Origin: Pseudomonadota bacterium
Lineage (GTDB): Bacteria; Pseudomonadota; Alphaproteobacteria; Rhizobiales; Xanthobacteraceae
DNA: 11,974 nucleotides
Assembly: GCA_023390695.1 (NCBI GenBank)
Contig: JAEWCJ010000046.1
Coordinates: 1 to 11,974, forward strand
Reading direction: 5' to 3'
Within the stretch, counting starts at the first letter, position 1, and each line of letters begins with the position of its first letter. Below are positions 683 to 11,974 of this stretch, one piece after another. A program made the position numbers and the translations under genes. The notes beneath the pieces were generated by a model. It did no database searches, was not told the origin of the DNA, and saw nothing but the letters and a program-made list of their open reading frames with translations.

Positions 683-1567
683 TCAGAACGGGCTGACCGG
701 GAAATAACGCAACCAGAGATCGGTAAAGCGCCCCTTCTCCCAGAGGCGGAACAGCGCCCAATTGAAGGCCTGCCGCAGCGTGCTGTTGCCCTGCTTGACT
801 GCGATCCCTACGCCTTCGCCGAAATAGCGGCTTTCAAAAAAGGCGCCGCCGGCGAACGCGCAACAGCCGGCGGAATCTGTGCCGTTGAGCCAGAACGACA
901 GCGAAATGCCATCTCCGAAGACATAGTCGACCTCATTCCGGCGCAAAGCCTCCCGTGCCGCCTCCGCGCTGGGATAGGGCATGGCCTGTGCCTCGGTGAA
1001 CAGGGTCTTGAGATAGGCCTCATGCGCACTGCCGGCGACCACTGCGATTTTCTTGCCCTCGACCAGTTCCGGCCGCAGCTCGCCCCTGGCAACCGCCTGC
1101 TGGGCCACAAACCGTGCCGGTACACGGTAATAAGGATCGCTGAATTCCAGAAGCTTGCGGGAGGCTTCCGTCACCGCGATGGAGGCAATCACCGCCTCCC
1201 CCCGATTTTCGTTTAACGCAGGAACAAGCGTGTCGAATCTACGCATCTGGATCGTGCAGGTAACCCGCAATTCTTCGCAGATCAGGCGGGCCAGATCGAC
1301 ATTGAACCCAGCCGGATGGCCGTCCGGGCCTGCAAAATTAAACGGCGGATAGTCGATTTCGGTCAGAAAACGGATCTGGGAGACACGCGAGAGATCGGGC
1401 CGCTCGGGACGCCGGCGAGGGTCCCAGAAACCGGGCACGGGTGAAACTTCGCTTGCCTGAGCGTGAGCGGAGGGCATCGCCTGGGGCAGCCACGCCGAGC
1501 CCGCAACCAGGATCGCAACCAAGGCCGCCATGCGCGGCCCTATGCAAGGAAAGCCACTTGTGAACAT
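683..1567 (-). CDS. Periplasmic amino-acid-type solute-binding protein (family 3)
   Basis: A family 3 extracellular solute-binding protein, the class that captures polar amino acids or similar small molecules in the periplasm for an ABC importer. With the ATG at 1567 it has 294 residues. The N-terminus carries a signal peptide: a hydrophobic stretch AALVAILVAGSAWLP and a cleavage-like AHAQA. The mature part has the usual fold landmarks: a beta strand followed by DYPPFNF, then PAGFNVDLARLICEEL (the family's G-x-x-x-D-L motif), ASIAVTEASRKLLEFSDPYY, and a C-terminal domain ending in a tryptophan/aromatic-rich helix. A TTG at 1579 is also in frame, but the ATG at 1567 is better placed relative to AGG (spacer 4) and fits a normal signal peptide. 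No permease or ATPase gene is adjacent, so this is an orphan receptor, either serving a distant transporter or acting in sensing. The ligand cannot be told. Confidence 0.85.
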   Translation of the reverse strand: MFTSGFPCIGPRMAALVAILVAGSAWLPQAMPSAHAQASEVSPVPGFWDPRRRPERPDLSRVSQIRFLTEIDYPPFNFAGPDGHPAGFNVDLARLICEELRVTCTIQMRRFDTLVPALNENRGEAVIASIAVTEASRKLLEFSDPYYRVPARFVAQQAVARGELRPELVEGKKIAVVAGSAHEAYLKTLFTEAQAMPYPSAEAAREALRRNEVDYVFGDGISLSFWLNGTDSAGCCAFAGGAFFESRYFGEGVGIAVKQGNSTLRQAFNWALFRLWEKGRFTDLWLRYFPVSPF

Positions 1568-1658
1568 AATACCTATCAATTCCGGCGAACCGACGCACTC
1601 GACCGCTTATAGACCAATCGCGGTGGCGTAACACTGGTTTGAAGTCGGAGGGGGGCAT
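1568..1658. promoter_or_regulatory. Divergent promoter region and RBS of the glycosyltransferase
   Basis: Ninety-one bases separate two divergent genes, so promoters for both must lie here or just inside the genes. A TATAAG-like element (minus strand, around 1605-1612) is the only AT-rich core that resembles a -10 box, and no convincing -35 partner is seen. On the plus strand a strong Shine-Dalgarno GGAGG at 1647-1651 stands 7 bases before the GTG at 1659, which decides that start. Confidence 0.4.
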
Positions 1659-3602
1659 GTGAGGGATCCTCACAGCGGGGTAACTTTGCGCCGGAATGCC
1701 TGGCCGCAGACCTGGTCTGCGAAGGCCGATGCCCTTTCATTTGCCCCGCTCTGGCAGACTTCTTCCGATCGGACCCGTCACAAGCTCGCTTCCTGCCCAG
1801 AAATCGATTGTGTCCGGCATTTGATGCCGCCGGGCGTAATCGCCGCAGCCGAGTTGCGAGCCATCGAGATTGGCACCGGCGCCGACCGCGTGCTGGTTGC
1901 AGAGGGTGCAATCTCCGATGAGCAGTATGTCAGGGCTTTGGCGTTCTCGCTGGGGACCAGCTACGACGACCTCAGACATGTTCCCCGCGCCGCATGCCCT
2001 GCCGCCGATCTGGAAATGATCGAGGCTGCAAGAACAGGGATTCTGTGGCTCGCGACCGGACAACGTCGTCTCCTGGTCATCGCACCCCACTCGCTTGCCG
2101 GGCGCCATCTCGTCACCCAGCTCAAGTTCGCGCCTCATCTCTCCAAGGATATTTACCTGACGACTTCCGGCCATCTGCTTGATTTCATCAACAGGCATGC
2201 GGCATCAACACTGACGCGGAAAGCAGCTTTCGAGCTCAGAACAACACAGCCGGATTTCTCCGCCGGGAAAGGTCGCGCCCAACCGATCTTGGCGGCGATT
2301 GGCTGGGCCGCCGTGCTTGCGACATTCATCACCGCCCCTGCACCAACAATGACCGTACTTGCTGTGATCCTTCTGAGTTGGGCGATCTTGCGCGTCATCG
2401 GCGCATTGACCACAGGTCTTTTATGGACCAGAGACACGGCAATTCCCGATTACGAACTTCCCGCCTATTCGATCATTGTTGCGCTTTATCGCGAAGCCAC
2501 TGCCGTCCAGGGACTCGTCGAAGCTCTTGAAGCACTCGACTATCCCCTAGAGAAGCTGGACATCACGTTCGTGCTGGAGGCCGATGACGCCGAAACGCGG
2601 TATGCGCTCTCCAAGCTAAATCTTGGCCCACCTTTCACGATCGTCACTGCACCCGGAATCGGGCCGAAAACCAAACCGAAAGCGCTCAATGCAGCGCTGC
2701 CATTTGCACGCGGAACGTATGTTGCGATATTCGATGCCGAAGACAGGCCAGAACCAGATCAACTGAGGAAAGCCGTCCAAGCCTTCCGTTCGGGACATCA
2801 AAAGCTCGCCTGCGTTCAGGCTCGCTTGACCATCGACAATTCCACCGACAGTTGGCTTACACGCATGTTCGCAGCCGAATATGCGGGCCTTTTCGATGTC
2901 TTTCTGCCTGGTCTCGCCGCATGGCACCTGCCCCTGCCGCTTGGCGGTTCGTCAAATCATTTTCGAACATCCACGCTGCGCGAAGCGGGCGCCTGGGATC
3001 CCTATAACGTCACCGAGGATGCCGATCTGGGAATGCGATTGGCGCGGCTCGGATATCATGCCGCCGTCATAAGCTCGACAACCTATGAAGAAGCGCCGGC
3101 GCGTTTCGTTCCGTGGCTGAAGCAACGCAGCCGATGGTTCAAGGGCTGGATGCAGACATGGCTGGTCCATATGCGCCATCCAATACGGCTGTGGCGCGAT
3201 CTCAAACCGTCGGGATTCATGGTATTTCAACTGGTGATCGGCGGCACCGTCCTGGCGGCCATCGCCCACGGCCTGTTTGCCGCAATGCTGGGCTGGCAAA
3301 TCGCATCCGGCTGGCTGTGGAGCGAAAAATCCAGCGTCGGCGACATAGTCATTGCCGGCTTGCACGCCACCACGTTCATCAGCGGCTATTTGATATCCGG
3401 ATTCCTAGGTGTGTCGGGTCTTGCCCGGCGAGGCATGATGCACAACGCATGGGCGCTTTTGCTGATGCCACTCTATTGGCTGCTGCTGTCGATTGCCGCC
3501 TGGCGGGCGTTATTCCAGCTCATCTTCACGCCCTACACATGGGAGAAGACGGAGCACACTCACGCGCGTCTCCCCTCCCGGCCACCCCGGATCACTTCCT
3601 GA
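1659..3602 (+). CDS. Membrane GT2 glycosyltransferase with MshEN-like N-terminal region
   Basis: A processive-type family 2 glycosyltransferase of the cellulose synthase-like group, 647 residues, expected in the inner membrane. Residues about 55-180 resemble the N-terminal domain of type II secretion/pilus ATPases (GspE/MshE type; for example LVAEGAISDEQYVRALAFSL at 79-98). Two membrane spans follow (about 208-227 and 231-253). The cytoplasmic GT-A domain spans about 265-500 and shows the substrate-binding acidic cluster EADD at 307-310, KPKALN at 339-344, DAEDR at 359-363, the catalytic TED at 452-454 and QRSRW at 489-493. Further spans lie at about 520-545, 563-585 and 597-624. All key D, D, D, QxxRW residues are intact. 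The start is GTG, supported by GGAGG 7 bases upstream; the overlapping ATG at 1657 runs straight into TGA. It stands alone on the plus strand, so the polysaccharide it makes cannot be inferred. Confidence 0.9.
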   Translation: MRDPHSGVTLRRNAWPQTWSAKADALSFAPLWQTSSDRTRHKLASCPEIDCVRHLMPPGVIAAAELRAIEIGTGADRVLVAEGAISDEQYVRALAFSLGTSYDDLRHVPRAACPAADLEMIEAARTGILWLATGQRRLLVIAPHSLAGRHLVTQLKFAPHLSKDIYLTTSGHLLDFINRHAASTLTRKAAFELRTTQPDFSAGKGRAQPILAAIGWAAVLATFITAPAPTMTVLAVILLSWAILRVIGALTTGLLWTRDTAIPDYELPAYSIIVALYREATAVQGLVEALEALDYPLEKLDITFVLEADDAETRYALSKLNLGPPFTIVTAPGIGPKTKPKALNAALPFARGTYVAIFDAEDRPEPDQLRKAVQAFRSGHQKLACVQARLTIDNSTDSWLTRMFAAEYAGLFDVFLPGLAAWHLPLPLGGSSNHFRTSTLREAGAWDPYNVTEDADLGMRLARLGYHAAVISSTTYEEAPARFVPWLKQRSRWFKGWMQTWLVHMRHPIRLWRDLKPSGFMVFQLVIGGTVLAAIAHGLFAAMLGWQIASGWLWSEKSSVGDIVIAGLHATTFISGYLISGFLGVSGLARRGMMHNAWALLLMPLYWLLLSIAAWRALFQLIFTPYTWEKTEHTHARLPSRPPRITS

Positions 3603-4977: not shown

Positions 4978-5712
4978 CTAGGCCAAAAACCCGGCATGGC
5001 TCATCGGCTTTTCGGCAACCAGATCCCATAGGGTTTGCGGAAGCGGCAACCGCGATGCGCCCGCCACATCGGCAGCCACGCTGAGCCGATACGGGCCTGT
5101 GCGGAAGGTCCAGAACGACCAGCGAGACCCGAATGCGGCCGGCGCATTACGCAATACAGGTGGCGAAAGGCTGAACGCGATTGCTTCCGGCGGTGTCGCA
5201 AGCGCTGCCCCTGTCGCCTTGAGAAGACTTTCCTTCAGCGTCCAGAGCATAAAGAAATCCTCGCAGGCGAGCTCCGAACCCGCTCCGGCCGCAAGGGCAT
5301 GGAGTTCCTCCGGTGCGCAGAACGTTTGCGCAGTCGCCAAGGTGGCGAGACCGGACTCCACCGCCTCTGCATCGACGCCGACCCGGCCACCTCGCGCAAC
5401 GGCGACAGCGGCGAGCCCTTCAGCATGCGACAGACTGATGCCGATGTCGGGATGCCCGGCCACCGCCGGCCTGCTGCCGGCCTCGCCTTCGATCACCCAT
5501 GCGCCCGGCTGATTGCCGGGGAAGCACCGGCTCAGTGCAAGGCGACGCAGAGCATGCGCCGCAATGAAATCGCGGCGTGCGTTCCGGTTGCGAAGGCGGT
5601 CCGCCCGCGCGGTCTCGCCGTTATCAAGCCAGGTCGATAGGTGCGCGGCCCGCGCCTCGTCGATACCCGTGGTCGATGCGATAAAAAGCTCAGGGCATTG
5701 CAAATCTGACAT
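4978..5712 (-). CDS. 4'-phosphopantetheinyl transferase (Sfp type)
   Basis: Transfers the phosphopantetheine arm from coenzyme A to the serine of carrier domains, turning an apo-NRPS into the active form. At 244 residues it matches the Sfp/Gsp-type two-lobed enzymes. Visible motifs: GISLSHAEG at 91-99, GVDAE at 112-116 (Mg ligands D114 and E116) and FMLWTLKESLLKATG at 154-168, in which E161 completes the metal site and the lysines belong to the signature W-x-x-K-E-x-x-x-K-A. It is the last gene of the operon, 15 bases after the transporter gene, so its natural client is almost certainly the carrier domain of the NRPS-like protein encoded at 7206-11207. The ATG at 5712 has only a weak ribosome binding site, consistent with coupling to the gene before it. 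Confidence 0.93.
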   Translation of the reverse strand: MSDLQCPELFIASTTGIDEARAAHLSTWLDNGETARADRLRNRNARRDFIAAHALRRLALSRCFPGNQPGAWVIEGEAGSRPAVAGHPDIGISLSHAEGLAAVAVARGGRVGVDAEAVESGLATLATAQTFCAPEELHALAAGAGSELACEDFFMLWTLKESLLKATGAALATPPEAIAFSLSPPVLRNAPAAFGSRWSFWTFRTGPYRLSVAADVAGASRLPLPQTLWDLVAEKPMSHAGFLA

Positions 5713-5727
5713 GCGCTCACGCTGCCG

Positions 5728-7209
5728 TCAGAGGAAGCCGCCATGGCCGACGAGCACGCCCACAGCGATCACGGCCAAGCCCGCGATGATCCCGGCGAGC
5801 CACCGCTCCGCGCCGCGGAAGACAGGCTGCCCGGATTGCTGCCGCTGCTTGATGAAAAGCAGAGTGCCCGGCGCGAAGGCGAGCGCCAGCAGCAGATAGG
5901 TGAGGCCGCCCGCATAGATCATGCCTCCGGCATAAATCATCGCAACCAGACTGATGAGCAGATCGCGACGCCGCACCCGCGGCTCGGACGCGTATGCCGT
6001 CCCTCGGGCGGCGACAAGTACGCCGAAACCGGCAACGAGAGCGTAGGGAATGATGCCCATGGCGCCTGCCATCTCGGCAGCCAACCGGAAGGTGGAATGC
6101 GAGAACAGGGTGAGCAGCAATATGATCTGAGCGAAGCCGTTGGTGATCCAGAGTGCGGCCTCCGGAGCGCCTTTGTCATTTTCTCGTCCGAGAAAGGCGG
6201 GCATCACGCCGGAACGCGAAGCCGACGAAAGCACCTCAGCCGACAGCAAAAGCCAGCTCAGGAATGCCCCGAGCACAGAGACTGCGAGCCCCAGACTGAC
6301 GAACAGCGCACCGCTCGGACCGATCAGCCGCTCCAGCACACCGGCCATCGAGGGATTGTGAAGTGCGGCAATCTCTTCCCGCGGCATCACGCCGTACGGC
6401 AAGAGCGTGACGCAGATCAGCATCGCCAGCACGGAGAGAAAGCCGAGGACGGTGGCTCGGCCGACATCCTTTCGACGACGTGCCATGCGGGAGTAAACGC
6501 TCGCCCCTTCGATGCCGAGAAAGACGAAGACTGTAATCAGCATCGTGTTACGCAATTGCGCGAACAAGGCGTCGGCGGTGAGGCCGCCCGGACCGGCAAG
6601 ATTGTCCAGCAGCACCTCCGGACGAATAGCCCAGGCCGCGATTGCGATGAAGATCAGGATCGGCACCAGCTTCGCCGCAGTGACGATCATGTTCAACGTC
6701 GCCGCCTGTCGCACGCCACAGAGGAGCATGGCGTGGAACGCCCAGAGGATCGCCGAAGCACCGACAATCGCGGCAATGGTGTTGCCATCGCCGAATGCGA
6801 GCCAGTACGCGCCGAGCGTCGATTGCAGCAGCAGCAGCAAGGCCACATTGCCCAGTACCGCGCCGGCCCAGTAGGCCAGAATGGCGAGGAAGCCAACATA
6901 GTCGCCGAATCCCTCGCGGACATAACCGACGATGCCGGTGTCGATATCGGCACGTCGCGTGGCAAGGGTCTGGAAGACAAGTGCCAGCATCAGCATGCCG
7001 GTGCCCGAAATCGCCCAGGCGATCATGGCTCCCAGCACTCCCGTCGCCTGCCCGAAGGCCTGGGGGAGAAAGAATACGCCGCCTCCCACCATGGAACCGA
7101 CGACGAGGCTCGCCAACGCAAGGAAGGAGAGCCCTCCCTGTGCCGGAGCCGCGGTATTGGACCCAGAGACTGCCGGAGCGGTCTGGGACGAGAATTCGAC
7201 AGTGCTCAA
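5728..7209 (-). CDS. APC-family transporter, basic amino acid/polyamine antiporter type
   Basis: A 493-residue inner membrane transporter of the amino acid-polyamine-organocation superfamily. About 12 hydrophobic helices follow a roughly 25-residue polar N-terminus. Helix 1 contains the substrate-binding G-rich motif GSMVGGGVFFLP at 38-49, and the helix 6 region reads FLGIEGASVYSRMARRRKDVG, a pattern typical of the basic amino acid antiporter branch (arginine:ornithine, arginine:agmatine and cadaverine:lysine exchangers). The exact substrate is not determined. The start is a TTG at 7209 that overlaps the TGA stop of the NRPS-like gene; GGAAG at 7217-7221 with a 7-base spacer supports it, and no other start lies before helix 1. 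Placed between a synthetase whose pocket suggests a diamino acid and its activating transferase, it probably supplies the monomer or exchanges it for a related amine. Confidence 0.88.
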   Translation of the reverse strand: MSTVEFSSQTAPAVSGSNTAAPAQGGLSFLALASLVVGSMVGGGVFFLPQAFGQATGVLGAMIAWAISGTGMLMLALVFQTLATRRADIDTGIVGYVREGFGDYVGFLAILAYWAGAVLGNVALLLLLQSTLGAYWLAFGDGNTIAAIVGASAILWAFHAMLLCGVRQAATLNMIVTAAKLVPILIFIAIAAWAIRPEVLLDNLAGPGGLTADALFAQLRNTMLITVFVFLGIEGASVYSRMARRRKDVGRATVLGFLSVLAMLICVTLLPYGVMPREEIAALHNPSMAGVLERLIGPSGALFVSLGLAVSVLGAFLSWLLLSAEVLSSASRSGVMPAFLGRENDKGAPEAALWITNGFAQIILLLTLFSHSTFRLAAEMAGAMGIIPYALVAGFGVLVAARGTAYASEPRVRRRDLLISLVAMIYAGGMIYAGGLTYLLLALAFAPGTLLFIKQRQQSGQPVFRGAERWLAGIIAGLAVIAVGVLVGHGGFL

Positions 7210-10200
7210 TGCGCAGCTTCCATCATGGGTTGGGCCGGCGCACCCATCCAGCGCGTGTTGGCCGGGATGGCTTCACCCTTCATCACGATGGTCAGCGGGG
7301 CCAGCTCGGCATAGGCACCGACACGCGTGTTGTAGAGCACCGTGGACAACGCACCGATGGAAGCTCCCTCTCCCACTTCAATCAGCCCGACCTTCATCAC
7401 CCGATCCTCGAACAGGTGCGTCTGAAGATTGGCGGTGGCATTGATCGCGGCATGATCGTGGATCCTGACGCAATCGAATTCCGTGATGTCGGTGCTGTCC
7501 ATGAACACACCGCGGCCGATCTTCACGCCGAACAGCCGGAGCGCCCATGGCAGCATGGGTGTGCCGCGGAAAGCGTTGAGCAGGATTTGGCCGGCCGTGC
7601 CCCAGTAGAGCGTGGTCATGGCTTCGGTCCTCAGGGCCCACCAGGAATAGAGACCCCGGTTGCCCGGACGGTAGACACCCATCAGCAGCCACTTCACCAG
7701 CAACACAACGGTTGCCAGCACGAACGAGCAGCCGACGCAGGTCGCCACGAAGATCGGCAGGAAATGCAGGAAGCTGTCCGACGCGTGAAGTGCCGGAAAC
7801 AGGACGAGCTCAGCCGCGATGGTGCCGACAGAAATGAACATCATGATCGGCATCGATGCGCTGAATAGCTCAAACACCCCACGGAGCAAGCGACGCCAGA
7901 ATGGCGGCCGGAACGTCTGCGCCTGATCCATGTCGTCGAAGCGCTGACGGCTCGGCAGACGGATGGGCGGGCTGCCGAACACGGTCTCGCCGCTTGCCAT
8001 GCCTTCTGCCGGCGGCTTCGACTTCACACCGATGAGCGCACCGTCCGGAATCTGTGCGCCCGGAGGAAGAACAGAGTCGTTGCCGAGGAACACCCGCGAG
8101 CCGGTGCGCACGTTGCGCGCCATCATCCAGCCGCGACGGACATCCTCCTCGGCCAGGACAACCTGGTCGGCGACGAAACACTTCTCGCCGATCTCGATGG
8201 AATCGTAGCGACCACCGAAACTGGTTGCGACCTCGGTGTCCTTGCCGATCCGGGCGCCCATCATGCGGTACCAGTAGCGCATGTAGATCGTGGAATAGAG
8301 AGACGACAGACTCTCCAGCATCACTTCGGAGGCAAGTGCCACCGTCCATTTCCTGACGCCGATGCCGGAAGCCACGGCATGGCGCGCAGGCGGAGGAGAC
8401 GGCATCACTGCCCAGCGGATGACGGTCACCAGCATCACCGTGCCGAACATCAGGATCATCGCTGTGGGCCACGCCAGAACCGGCATCACGAAGCGATAGT
8501 CGATGCCGATTGCGTCCTGCAGCACGGAGTCGTAGCGATCGATCACATAGAAGGCCGGGAAGACGGGCAGCAGGCTGAGCGCCGGCATCAACTGCACCAA
8601 CAGGCCTTGGTAGAGGTTTTGCATCGCCTGGACCGGGCGGGAGGGCTGCGGCGCAGGCTCCGGCCAGGAGGACGGATCCACGCTGCCGACACGACGACCC
8701 GGGGAGCCGTCCCAATGTTCGAACGCGCCGACGCGCGTGCCCGGCGGCAACGCCGTCAAATCCGCCAACTCCGCTCCTTCACCGATGATCGTATCGGGAC
8801 CGATGGCGCAGGAGGTGCCGATATAGGCATCCTTGCCGATGCTGACCTTGCCGATCACCAGTTCACCGCCCACCACCTCAGCATTGGCGATGCTGATCTT
8901 GGCGCCGAGCGTCACGTTGTCGCCGATCTCGACCAGGTCGATGGCACCTGCTTCGAAGCCGCTGAAATAGACGCCGCGCCCAACCTTGGCGCCGAGCATC
9001 CGCATGACGAAGAGAGCGAGTGTGGTGCCCTGCATCAGATGCAGATGGGTGAAATTCACCAGCGCGCGAGACAGCCACCATCGGAAATAATAGACACCCC
9101 ACACCGGATAGCGGCCCGGCGTCGCCCGCCAGAGGACCAGACGCTTGCCGATGATACCCAATATGCCGATCGCTGCTGTAACCAGGGCATAGACACCGAG
9201 GAGTTGGAACACCTCGATGGGCTTGATCACGTCGTCGCTGGTGATCAGTTCGTAAGTGACGAAGATGGTGAGCCAGGGCCCGGTGAGCGCCAGCAACAGC
9301 AGAGGCATGCACGCCGCCTGCGCAAGACCGCAGAGGAAGCGGCGCAGGAGCGGCGGGGGGCTGAAGGAAAGATCGGCCTGTGCCTGCGGAGCCGTCCGCT
9401 CATCAAGCTTGGCGGCCATTGCGCGCAGCGTGCGCAGACCGTAGATGTCTTGCAGGGTGATGGCCGGCAGCGAGGGGTTCTCGCGCAAGGCTGCCAGGAA
9501 GGTGGCCGCCAGCAAGGAATGACCGCCGAGTTCGGCGAAGAAATCCGCCTCGAAGCTGACCGCTTGTCCCGGAAACAACGGCTTTGCTGCAGCGAGCAGC
9601 GTCGCCTCTGTCGCGGTCAGCGGCTCCTCCTGCTCCTCGATTTCAGCCGGCGCCGAGAGCGGCGCCGCCTTCAGCGCCTTGCGGTCAGCCTTGCCGGACG
9701 TCAGACGGGGCAGGACGGTCATGGCCTCAAAATGCGACGGGACCATGTAGGGCGGCAGCTTTTCCCGCAACACGGCACGAAGACCTGCACCGTCAACTTT
9801 CTGTCCCGGCTCCGGGACCACAAAAGCGACAAGCCGATCGATGCCGTCATCACGCCGCAGCACCACCGCGCACTGCGAAACAGCCGGCATTTCCGACAGC
9901 CGCGCCTCGATTTCCCCCAGCTCAAGGCGGAAGCCGCGCAACTTGACCTGATCGTCGATCCGGCCGTGATAGAGGATGCGGCCATCCTCAGAGAGACTGA
10001 CGGCGTCGCCGGAGCGGTACAGAATGGGATCTCCGGCATCCTTGGCGAACGGGTTCGGAATGAACTTCTCGGCTGTCAGCTCGGGACGGCCGAGATAGCC
10101 GCGCGCCACGCCGGGGCCGCCGATGAGCAGCTCGCCCTCCTGGCCCAGGCCGAGGAGTTGCATGTCCTCGGAGACGATGTAGCAGGTGTAGTTCGGAACC

Positions 10201-11207
10201 GGCACGCCGATGGTGATGATGCCGTCTGCGGTCACCTCATCTACCGTGGCGACAACCGTCGTCTCCGTCGGACCGTAGGAGTTCATTACGCGACGGCCAG
10301 CTCGGCACCATCGCTGCCGCACGGACGGCGGACAGGCTTCGCCGCCAAGAATGATAAGCCGGATGCTGGGCACGTCGTCGGGCAGCATGGCCAGAAGAGT
10401 GGGAACCGTATCGAGCACGGTGATCCCGGCCTCGCGCATGATGGACGGCAGACGCTCCACTTCGGCCAGCACGTCAGGATAAGCAACCCAGAGCGTGGCG
10501 CCGACCATGTAGGGAATGAAGATCTCTTCCAAGGAGAGGTCGAAAGCGACCGAGGCGCCCTGGAAGCAAACGTCATCCGGCCGCATGCCGTAGACTACGT
10601 TGGTCGAGCGCAGACAATGGCAGATGTTGCGGTGCTCGATGACAATGCCCTTGGGCTTGCCCGTGGAGCCGGAGGTATAGATGGCATAGGCGGGATGGGC
10701 CGACGTGACGCCATCGGCGCGCAGATCCGGCGCAGCGCCCTCTCCGCCTTCTTCGACCAGCTTCAAGCAATGCAGAATCTCGGCGGGCAATTTGCCTTGG
10801 ATCTTTGCAGCGGTGGCCGCATCGACGATCAGAATACGTGCCTGGCAATCGGACAAACATTCACCGACCCGGTCCGACGGCGCATCGGCGTCGAAGGGGA
10901 TGTAGGCAGCGCCGGCTTTCAGGATGCCGAGCAGACCGACATGCAGGTCGAGCGAGCGTGACATCCAAAGGCCGACAAAGTCACCGGCCCGGATTCCACG
11001 CGCACGAAGCGCGCGGGCAACCTTGGTCGCGCGCGCATCCAGTTCCCGATAGGTGATGCGCTCGCCGTTAAAGACGATGGCCGCATGATCGGGCCGGCGC
11101 CGAACCGATTCAACGAACACCTCGGGAAGCAGTTCATCTCGCAGCAGATCCGGATCAGGTCTCCCGATCAGAACTCCTGTAATGGTGCCTGTTACCGATG
11201 CGTCCAT
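7206..11207 (-). CDS. Pls/PosA-like membrane NRPS: candidate cationic homopoly(amino acid) synthetase
   Basis: An NRPS-like protein of 1333 residues (Streptomyces epsilon-poly-L-lysine synthetase has 1319). The adenylation domain occupies about 25-515: YTSGSTGKPKG at 177-187, NSYGPTETTV at 309-318, YRSGD at 397-401, GRIDDQVKLRGFRLELGEIE at 415-434 and the A10 lysine K506. The carrier domain at about 530-600 has FFAELGGHSL at 556-565 with attachment serine S564. No condensation (HHxxxDG) or thioesterase domain exists. From about 620 on, three pairs of membrane spans (624-650, 668-690; 865-889, 905-932; 1112-1140, 1147-1177) alternate with three left-handed beta-helix modules (about 735-840, 955-1085, 1185-1325). 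Aligned by eye to GrsA, the pocket residues are D223, L224, E227, D266, I286, G288, S310, V318, V319, K506. Expected role: adenylate a basic amino acid, load it on S564 and polymerise it at the membrane. First gene of the operon; the ATG at 11207 has a weak GAGA upstream. The polymer and its linkage are inferred. Confidence 0.93.
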   Translation of the reverse strand: MDASVTGTITGVLIGRPDPDLLRDELLPEVFVESVRRRPDHAAIVFNGERITYRELDARATKVARALRARGIRAGDFVGLWMSRSLDLHVGLLGILKAGAAYIPFDADAPSDRVGECLSDCQARILIVDAATAAKIQGKLPAEILHCLKLVEEGGEGAAPDLRADGVTSAHPAYAIYTSGSTGKPKGIVIEHRNICHCLRSTNVVYGMRPDDVCFQGASVAFDLSLEEIFIPYMVGATLWVAYPDVLAEVERLPSIMREAGITVLDTVPTLLAMLPDDVPSIRLIILGGEACPPSVRQRWCRAGRRVMNSYGPTETTVVATVDEVTADGIITIGVPVPNYTCYIVSEDMQLLGLGQEGELLIGGPGVARGYLGRPELTAEKFIPNPFAKDAGDPILYRSGDAVSLSEDGRILYHGRIDDQVKLRGFRLELGEIEARLSEMPAVSQCAVVLRRDDGIDRLVAFVVPEPGQKVDGAGLRAVLREKLPPYMVPSHFEAMTVLPRLTSGKADRKALKAAPLSAPAEIEEQEEPLTATEATLLAAAKPLFPGQAVSFEADFFAELGGHSLLAATFLAALRENPSLPAITLQDIYGLRTLRAMAAKLDERTAPQAQADLSFSPPPLLRRFLCGLAQAACMPLLLLALTGPWLTIFVTYELITSDDVIKPIEVFQLLGVYALVTAAIGILGIIGKRLVLWRATPGRYPVWGVYYFRWWLSRALVNFTHLHLMQGTTLALFVMRMLGAKVGRGVYFSGFEAGAIDLVEIGDNVTLGAKISIANAEVVGGELVIGKVSIGKDAYIGTSCAIGPDTIIGEGAELADLTALPPGTRVGAFEHWDGSPGRRVGSVDPSSWPEPAPQPSRPVQAMQNLYQGLLVQLMPALSLLPVFPAFYVIDRYDSVLQDAIGIDYRFVMPVLAWPTAMILMFGTVMLVTVIRWAVMPSPPPARHAVASGIGVRKWTVALASEVMLESLSSLYSTIYMRYWYRMMGARIGKDTEVATSFGGRYDSIEIGEKCFVADQVVLAEEDVRRGWMMARNVRTGSRVFLGNDSVLPPGAQIPDGALIGVKSKPPAEGMASGETVFGSPPIRLPSRQRFDDMDQAQTFRPPFWRRLLRGVFELFSASMPIMMFISVGTIAAELVLFPALHASDSFLHFLPIFVATCVGCSFVLATVVLLVKWLLMGVYRPGNRGLYSWWALRTEAMTTLYWGTAGQILLNAFRGTPMLPWALRLFGVKIGRGVFMDSTDITEFDCVRIHDHAAINATANLQTHLFEDRVMKVGLIEVGEGASIGALSTVLYNTRVGAYAELAPLTIVMKGEAIPANTRWMGAPAQPMMEAAH
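7217..7221 (-). promoter_or_regulatory. RBS deciding the TTG start of the transporter gene
   Basis: GGAAG on the minus strand, 7 bases before the TTG at 7209, inside the last codons of the NRPS-like gene. TTG and the NRPS stop TGA share two bases (TTGA), which points to translational coupling of the two genes. Confidence 0.6.
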
Positions 11208-11928: not shown

Positions 11929-11974
11929 TGGAGCGGGCGATGGGAATCGAACCCACGACATACAGCTTGGGAAG
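11929..11974 (-). tRNA. tRNA-Gly (CCC), 3' part, cut by window edge
   Basis: Read on the minus strand from the window edge: the anticodon loop TTCCCAA (11967-11973) with anticodon CCC at 11969-11971, the 3' anticodon stem GCTGT, a 5-base variable loop, a T arm GTGGG-TTCGATT-CCCAT with a proper 5-bp stem (11940-11956), the 3' acceptor strand CGCCCGC, discriminator T and an encoded CCA at 11929-11931. Only the D arm and 5' acceptor strand lie outside. Anticodon CCC assigns glycine, and the CGCCCGC-T-CCA end matches bacterial tRNA-Gly. Confidence 0.9.

What the first reader, a model, noticed from the sequence alone, without database searches (positions are those of the whole stretch)
4978..11207. 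Compact operon that looks like a cationic homopoly(amino acid) biosynthesis system in an alphaproteobacterium
Seen: three tightly packed genes (2-base start/stop overlap, then a 15-base gap) encode an A-T-membrane/beta-helix synthetase, a basic amino acid type APC transporter and a dedicated phosphopantetheinyl transferase. Known: the same architecture and length define epsilon-poly-L-lysine synthetase of Streptomyces and the Pls/PosA family, which make antimicrobial isopeptide-linked polymers without a normal condensation domain. Inferred: this cassette makes a cationic polymer or oligomer of a diamino acid. Having transporter and activator in the same transcript makes it a self-contained unit.
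Basis: partly seen in the sequence, partly recalled or inferred. Interest (0 to 1): 0.85.

Follow-up and report, generated by a model that had tools for sequence, protein, structure and literature searches.

The report
Cationic amino-acid polymer synthetase operon
This is a three-gene operon in an alphaproteobacterium for a known kind of enzyme that strings basic amino acids into a positively charged chain; the building block is not yet known, and the operon carries its own amino-acid transporter and enzyme activator.

Summary
In detail: three tandem genes encode a 1333-aa adenylation-carrier-membrane synthetase, a basic amino acid/polyamine antiporter and a phosphopantetheinyl transferase (PPTase). 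The synthetase belongs to the Pls/PosA family: TIGR02353, 535 bits against a cut-off of 423, and 39% identity over its length to the Acinetobacter delta-poly-L-ornithine synthetase PosA. Its adenylation code is DLEDIGSVVK. That class is in print with unknown substrate, so lysine, ornithine or diaminobutyrate cannot be read off; PosA is the nearest characterised relative I could compare. The trio recurs in 6 of 6 clade relatives from one family; of the same clade, 0 of 10 Bosea loci and 1 of 6 Methylobacterium loci have the antiporter. In 19 of 22 clade genomes searched, the antiporter occurs only beside the synthetase (4) or is not found (15). Best reading: an isopeptide-linked poly- or oligo-(basic amino acid) made at the inner membrane, with dedicated monomer exchange and carrier activation. 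Monomer and product are untested. This is a new member of a known kind.

The parts
7206..11207 (-). Pls/PosA-family synthetase (A - T - membrane/hexapeptide domain), 1333 aa
   Evidence: ORF; TIGR02353 535 bits; 39% identity, residues 1-1327, to A. baumannii PosA
9690..11114 (-). Adenylation domain, residues 32-506; code D223 L224 E227 D266 I286 G288 S310 V318 V319 K506 = DLEDIGSVVK
   Evidence: PF00501 and PF13193; code mapped through PosA, whose residues D217, M218, E221, H260, N280, T304, V312 and S313 came out as published
9411..9572 (-). Carrier (T) domain, residues 546-599, with intact LGGHSL serine motif
   Evidence: PF00550 26.8 bits over cut-off 20.8; motif seen in the translation
7233..9317 (-). 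C-terminal polymerising domain, residues 631-1325: three pairs of hydrophobic segments with soluble parts between
   Evidence: TIGR02353; hydrophobic segments 623-656, 660-696, 865-891, 906-938, 1107-1143, 1145-1182
7392..7424 (-). QTHLFEDRVMK, residues 1262-1272: candidate catalytic stretch in the third soluble part
   Evidence: Q1262, H1264, E1267 and K1272 are kept in about 99% of 287 rows and in all of 16 diverse rows including PosA; catalytic role is inference
5728..7209 (-). Basic amino acid/polyamine antiporter (APC superfamily), 493 aa, TTG start
   Evidence: TIGR00905 over cut-off; groups with the antiporters of 7 sister operons in one 29-row branch
4978..5712 (-). 4'-phosphopantetheinyl transferase, 244 aa
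   Evidence: PF01648; GVDAE and WTLKESLLKATG seen in the translation (meaning of these motifs recalled)
7206..7209 (-). TTGA overlap of synthetase stop and antiporter start
   Evidence: sequence
5713..5727 (-). 15-nt antiporter-PPTase spacer
   Evidence: sequence

Best explanation
The operon makes a short cationic isopeptide chain of one basic amino acid at the inner membrane. The PPTase converts the carrier domain to its holo form. The adenylation domain activates a basic, probably diamino, acid (ornithine- or lysine-sized) and loads it on the carrier. The membrane-embedded C-terminal domain joins monomers through the side-chain amine, over and over, without a classical condensation domain; the invariant His/Glu/Lys stretch at residues 1262-1272 is the likely active site. 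The antiporter is a dedicated partner that brings in the monomer or its precursor, or exchanges it against a related amine. Shown by sequence: gene order, family membership, intact motifs, linkage of antiporter to synthetase. Inferred: monomer class, polymer formation, active site, antiporter role and direction. Unknown: exact monomer, chain length, biological role.
For: TIGR02353 at 535 bits. Full-length 39% identity to PosA, which makes delta-poly-L-ornithine of 7-12 units in vitro (abstract of PMC10522769). The A-domain and C-terminal trees both put PosA beside the DLED class. D223 and E227 keep the two positions that bind the alpha- and side-chain amines in PosA. A module assigned to lysine in a pyoverdine synthetase carries DGEDHGTV, so Glu at position 3 with Asp at position 4 fits a lysine-type substrate (PMC3207962 passages). 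Trio in 6 of 6 clade loci of one family. The antiporter lies beside the synthetase in 4 of 19 clade genomes and is not found in the other 15; operon antiporters share one branch. PPTase genes sit next to related synthetases in Rhizobium, in Sphingomonas and upstream in four Rhodospirillales-type loci (one of the four checked by Pfam).
Against: DLEDIGSVVK matches no enzyme of known substrate; the class is listed as unknown in PMC10522769. I found no paper that shows a product for this class. Antiporter and PPTase are dispensable in sister lineages: none of 10 Bosea clade loci has either, and 1 of 6 Methylobacterium loci has the antiporter. The antiporter fails the arginine-ornithine equivalog cut-off. 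The pyoverdine lysine assignment rests on code and mass spectra, not on an enzyme assay. The trees held no characterised Pls or Dab/Dap enzyme, and the program warns that the join with PosA is between long branches. No structure model could be had.
Confidence: 0.7

Rival explanations
1. The C-terminal domain transfers a single aminoacyl group (or very few) to a lipid, sugar or polyamine acceptor, so the product is a decorated envelope component, not a homopolymer.
For: The C-terminal part has weak PDB matches to hexapeptide acyltransferases such as LpxA and GlmU (best E 3.5e-5). A related copy is found in 110 of 111 Methylobacterium and 67 of 67 Bosea genomes, which looks more like a core envelope function than an antibiotic.
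Against: The characterised members of the family are described as homopolymer makers in PMC10522769, including PosA, at 39% identity and with the same invariant stretch.
Confidence: 0.15
2. The antiporter has no part in polymer making: it is an arginine/ornithine-type catabolic exchanger that shares the transcript.
For: Its best profile by bits is the arginine-ornithine antiporter model, below that model's cut-off; most relatives of the synthetase do without it.
Against: In 19 clade genomes this antiporter was found nowhere but at the synthetase, and the operon antiporters share one branch apart from 99 other homologues.
Confidence: 0.15
3. Sub-reading of the best explanation (not exclusive of it): the monomer is not ornithine or lysine but arginine, beta-lysine or another cationic amino acid, giving a polymer outside the known set.
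For: Two acidic pocket residues (E227, D266) and Leu at the chain-length position set the class apart from the codes of known enzymes; a homologue with an odd code preferred L-arginine in vitro (PMC10522769).
Against: The nearest characterised relative uses L-ornithine; a Glu3/Asp4 code is assigned to lysine in a pyoverdine synthetase.
Confidence: 0.3

Closest known systems
PosA, delta-poly-L-ornithine synthetase of Acinetobacter baumannii (PMC10522769)
   Same: 39% identity over residues 1-1327, same domain order, 1332 vs 1333 aa, conserved QTHLFEDR; branch next to the DLED class in A-domain and C-terminal trees
   Different: Code DMEHNGTVSK against DLEDIGSVVK; the paper calls posA a single-gene operon, here transporter and PPTase follow
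Epsilon-poly-L-lysine synthetase (Pls) of Streptomyces; PDB 7WEW A domain
   Same: Same family and architecture; A domain matches at 5e-73
   Different: More distant than PosA by A domain (249 vs 357 bits); Pls has Ala at code position 2 (paper), here Leu
NAPAA cluster with code DLedLgTVvK in Bosea (PMC10508160) and 'non-alpha poly-amino acid' clusters in Methylobacterium (PMC8561711)
   Same: Same substrate-code class
   Different: Presumably the near-universal copy, 50-58% identical to the window's, without antiporter nearby in 80 of 80 loci; the window belongs to a separate second branch
Arginine/agmatine antiporter AdiC and ArcD-type antiporters
   Same: Same superfamily; AdiC is the closest solved structure (5e-23)
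   Different: Own branch; fails the arginine-ornithine equivalog cut-off

Membership tests
Pls/PosA family NRPS (TIGR02353) | C-terminal domain over the curated score | tested here: met
   535 bits vs 423.1, residues 631-1325
Pls/PosA family NRPS (TIGR02353) | A domain followed by a carrier domain with the serine motif | tested here: met
   PF00501, PF13193, PF00550 over cut-offs; LGGHSL in the translation
Pls/PosA family NRPS (TIGR02353) | no classical condensation or thioesterase domain | tested here: met
   six Pfam families listed up to E 0.001, none of these
Pls/PosA family NRPS (TIGR02353) | six transmembrane helices in three pairs | tested here: met
   Kyte-Doolittle scan
Pls/PosA family NRPS (TIGR02353) | three left-handed beta-helix parts | tested here: inconclusive
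Pls/PosA family NRPS (TIGR02353) | Asp and Glu at code positions 1 and 3 (conserved for cationic monomers) | tested here: met
   D223, E227; rule from PMC10522769
Pls/PosA family NRPS (TIGR02353) | makes an isopeptide homopolymer | not testable with these tools
   needs enzyme or culture chemistry
delta-poly-L-ornithine synthetase (PosA proper) | ornithine code DMEHNGTVSK | tested here: not met
   window code DLEDIGSVVK
epsilon-poly-L-lysine synthetase (Pls proper) | Ala at code position 2 | tested here: not met
   Leu224
Arginine-ornithine antiporter (TIGR03810) | curated score 591 bits | tested here: not met
   473.2 bits
Basic amino acid/polyamine antiporter (TIGR00905) | curated score 409.05 bits | tested here: met
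   433.2 bits
4'-phosphopantetheinyl transferase superfamily (PF01648) | score over gathering cut-off 25 | tested here: met
   52.2 bits

The most novel reading that the evidence does not exclude
The DLED class of synthetases makes a cationic isopeptide polymer from a monomer outside the known Dap/Dab/Orn/Lys/beta-Lys set, and in Methylobacterium and Bosea it is a near-universal core, perhaps envelope, function, not an antibiotic. The window holds a second, specialised version with its own monomer antiporter and carrier activator.
Probability: 0.2. Interest if true: 0.7.

Novelty: new member of a known kind. Interest (0 to 1): 0.4.

Why it matters
Few cationic homopolymers are known (PMC10522769 counts six diamino homopolymers before its own), and that paper reports the first from bacteria other than Actinomycetes (abstract). 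The DLED class is common in Alphaproteobacteria, yet I found no known substrate, product or role for it. An operon with its own PPTase and antiporter is a convenient unit for expression, and the antiporter narrows the search for the monomer to cationic amino acids and polyamines. The near-universal sister copy raises a question that can be tested directly: why almost every Methylobacterium and Bosea genome keeps such an enzyme.

Tried and rejected
Laying the whole genome or searching the window's own relatives was not possible: no genome is held. That the trio is the general arrangement for this enzyme: rejected, 0 of 80 loci (80 kept of 97 found; all at 58% identity or less, some with short flanks) show the antiporter. 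That neighbours of the near-universal copy reveal its role: they look like housekeeping synteny (FabI-type reductase, histidine phosphatase, chorismate synthase, PPK2; 10 of 45 listed neighbour groups were sent to Pfam), so this led nowhere. A riboswitch or other RNA element upstream: none found up to E 0.5; the only match is a tRNA fragment at the window's edge. A sigma-70 promoter: none found, 1.4 expected by chance, so not informative. A genomic-island repeat of the tRNA end: it occurs once in the window. A pseudogene: rejected, frames and motifs are intact. Reading the monomer from the code: failed, the class matches no characterised enzyme. An early search of 8 relatives' genomes for the antiporter was empty, but the tool warned that without a positive it shows nothing; one search supplied positives.

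Full report
What is there. Three genes lie in tandem on the minus strand: a 1333-aa synthetase (7206-11207), a 493-aa APC transporter (5728-7209, TTG start) and a 244-aa phosphopantetheinyl transferase (4978-5712). The first two overlap by TTGA, so that stop and start codon share two bases; the next gap is 15 nt.

Family. The synthetase has AMP-binding, AMP-binding C-terminal, carrier and hexapeptide matches and no condensation or thioesterase family. TIGR02353 (Pls/PosA family) scores 535 bits against 423.1 over residues 631-1325. Six hydrophobic segments come in three pairs, as described for this domain in PMC10522769 (section read). I took the PosA gene from a named A. baumannii record, strain VB958, where it is annotated only as an adenylation-domain protein; all eight published pocket residues stand at the published numbers. 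Against it the window protein is 39% identical over residues 1-1327. In the PDB the highest whole-sequence scores belong to linear gramicidin synthetase and another large synthetase, each by two stretches; the best single-stretch match is the PosA A domain (8G95, 1.3e-105, 357 bits), while the epsilon-poly-L-lysine synthetase A domain (7WEW) has 5e-73, 249 bits. NCBI already names several relatives at 68-73% identity 'Pls/PosA family non-ribosomal peptide synthetase'.

Substrate code. I mapped the ten specificity positions through PosA. The window reads D L E D I G S V V K. Of 287 rows (many repeat one gene in overlapping loci), 157 have exactly this code, 82 DLEDLGTVVK, 12 DLEDIGTVVK, 14 other codes beginning with DLE, and 22 begin with DF, DA or DM. 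PMC10522769 lists 'D L E D I G T V T/V/I K' from Archaea, Rhizobia and Methylobacterium as a signature without known substrate (section read). PMC10508160 (whole text read) reports a NAPAA cluster with code DLedLgTVvK in a Bosea strain, found also in the seven other complete Bosea genomes. The class is therefore in print; a substrate for it is not, as far as my searches of an open-access library go. Positions 1 and 3 (Asp, Glu) are those that bind the two amines in PosA. Position 2 is Leu, near Met in size, where PosA has Met, Pls Ala and Dab/Dap enzymes Phe. Position 4 is Asp. In PMC3207962 (passages read) the single-module enzyme assigned to the lysine of a pyoverdine has DGEDHGTV, so Glu3 with Asp4 fits a lysine-type monomer; that assignment rests on code and product mass spectra, and the authors' purified modules were inactive.

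Tree. In a 58-row tree (quick method, no bootstrap) all 48 rows with DLE codes form one branch (100*) with PosA next to it (99*); the window sits in a sub-branch of 20 rows (100*), which I call clade B, with Aquabacter, Xanthobacter, some Bosea and some Methylobacterium. The program warns that PosA and other outer rows are long and that their joins may be false. Separate 22-row trees agree: in the C-terminal tree PosA is next to the DLED rows (97*), in the A-domain tree PosA, a Flavipsychrobacter row with a PosA-like code and the DLED rows share an unresolved branch (98*). No characterised Pls, Dab or Dap enzyme was in these trees; rows with such codes stood in.

Two copies. A copy at 53-57% identity is found in 110 of 111 genomes of the genus of G001 (Methylobacterium), and one at 50-58%, in two genomes only as partial matches, in 67 of 67 genomes of the genus of G003 (Bosea). 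Those that I read carry DLED-type codes; I did not read all. Clade B is an extra copy in 6 of 111 and 10 of 67 of them. Of 397 genomes drawn from the order, 43 match at E 1e-200 or better. In the family of G371, 27 of 391 genomes match and 6 are clade B at 71-74%; three of these six were searched with TIGR02353 and each has one full-length copy. G371 was chosen because its lysyl-tRNA synthetase gave the best score (382 bits, 82%) against that at the window's edge, among 387 genomes of the order; G371 itself has no synthetase match. Contig lengths identify three of the six as Aquabacter, so I take the window to come from this family, Xanthobacteraceae in the wide sense; that is inference. [quoted passage not shown]

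The operon. I fetched the surroundings of 22 clade-B genes; L133 has only residues 11-1068 of the synthetase in the match and L177 starts at residue 275 because the contig ends. All 6 loci from the family of G371 have synthetase, antiporter and PPTase in this order on one strand, with a possible 4-nt antiporter/PPTase overlap (my first gene call had missed the PPTase of L172). Of 6 Methylobacterium loci one has the antiporter and five have a gene of OprB-porin type directly after the synthetase or antiporter (Pfam on two of the five; the others by similarity). Of 10 Bosea loci none has antiporter or PPTase, and no neighbour is shared by more than 4 of them. Among 80 more distant loci none has the antiporter. 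A whole-genome search with a clade-B antiporter in 19 of the 22 clade-B genomes, at E 1e-20, found it in 4, each time at the synthetase, and not in the other 15; five 28-29% matches to other transporters also appeared. In a FastTree of 128 rows the antiporters of the window and of 7 operons fall in one 29-row branch (100*) apart from 99 other homologues. Six pairs of synthetase and antiporter rows in the protein searches also share a contig length, among them one on an 8.6-kb and one on a 14.6-kb contig. So the transporter is tied to this synthetase branch, but the synthetase is not tied to the transporter.

PPTase genes turn up beside related synthetases elsewhere: 8 nt downstream in a Rhizobium plasmid, overlapping in a Sphingomonas plasmid, whose code is PosA-like, and just upstream in four loci (one checked by Pfam). 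This repeated pairing supports a dedicated activating role.

How it likely works. PPTase arms the carrier; the A domain loads a basic amino acid; the membrane domain polymerises through the side-chain amine. Thirty-eight positions of the C-terminal domain are kept in over 95% of 287 rows and identical in 16 diverse ones, among them Q1262, H1264, E1267 and K1272 in the third soluble part; PosA has the same QTHLFEDR. I propose them as the active site; this is inference. No solved structure of the domain was found by sequence; the 19 matches up to E 0.01 are weak ones to hexapeptide transferases and other beta-helix proteins. The structure predictor was closed.

Limits. No sequence evidence fixes the monomer, chain length, direction of transport or biological role. 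No genome is held for the window, so a second copy or another PPTase in the same cell cannot be excluded.

Noticed in passing
related genomes (genus of G001 and of G003): A related synthetase copy is nearly universal: 110 of 111 Methylobacterium and 67 of 67 Bosea genomes, unusual for a gene seen as antibiotic biosynthesis.
   Followed up: partly
L128, L129, L130, L131, L132: A gene of OprB-porin type follows the clade-B synthetase (or antiporter) in 5 of 6 Methylobacterium loci, which suggests that something crosses the outer membrane.
   Followed up: partly
11929-11974 (-): 3' part of a tRNA gene, cut by the window's end, lies upstream of the operon (Rfam score 24.9, below the gathering score 29); about 720 bases without a clear gene lie between.
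   Followed up: partly
683-1579 (-): Periplasmic binding protein of lysine/arginine/ornithine type (TIGR01096 below cut-off); none of the eight window ORFs scanned is a matching permease.
   Followed up: no
1659-3602 (+): Family 2 glycosyltransferase whose first 267 residues match no Pfam family up to E 0.001.
   Followed up: no
L153-L155 and L156-L166: Other genomes of the same family carry distant synthetases with code DAESVGTVVK (Ala at position 2, as stated for Pls) or codes beginning with DFE (Phe, as stated for Dab/Dap enzymes), so several polymer types may coexist in one family.
   Followed up: partly
L170:10032-12618: In a Streptomyces plasmid the synthetase gene is followed by diaminobutyrate transaminase and aspartate kinase genes, a likely monomer supply for a Dab polymer.
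   Followed up: no
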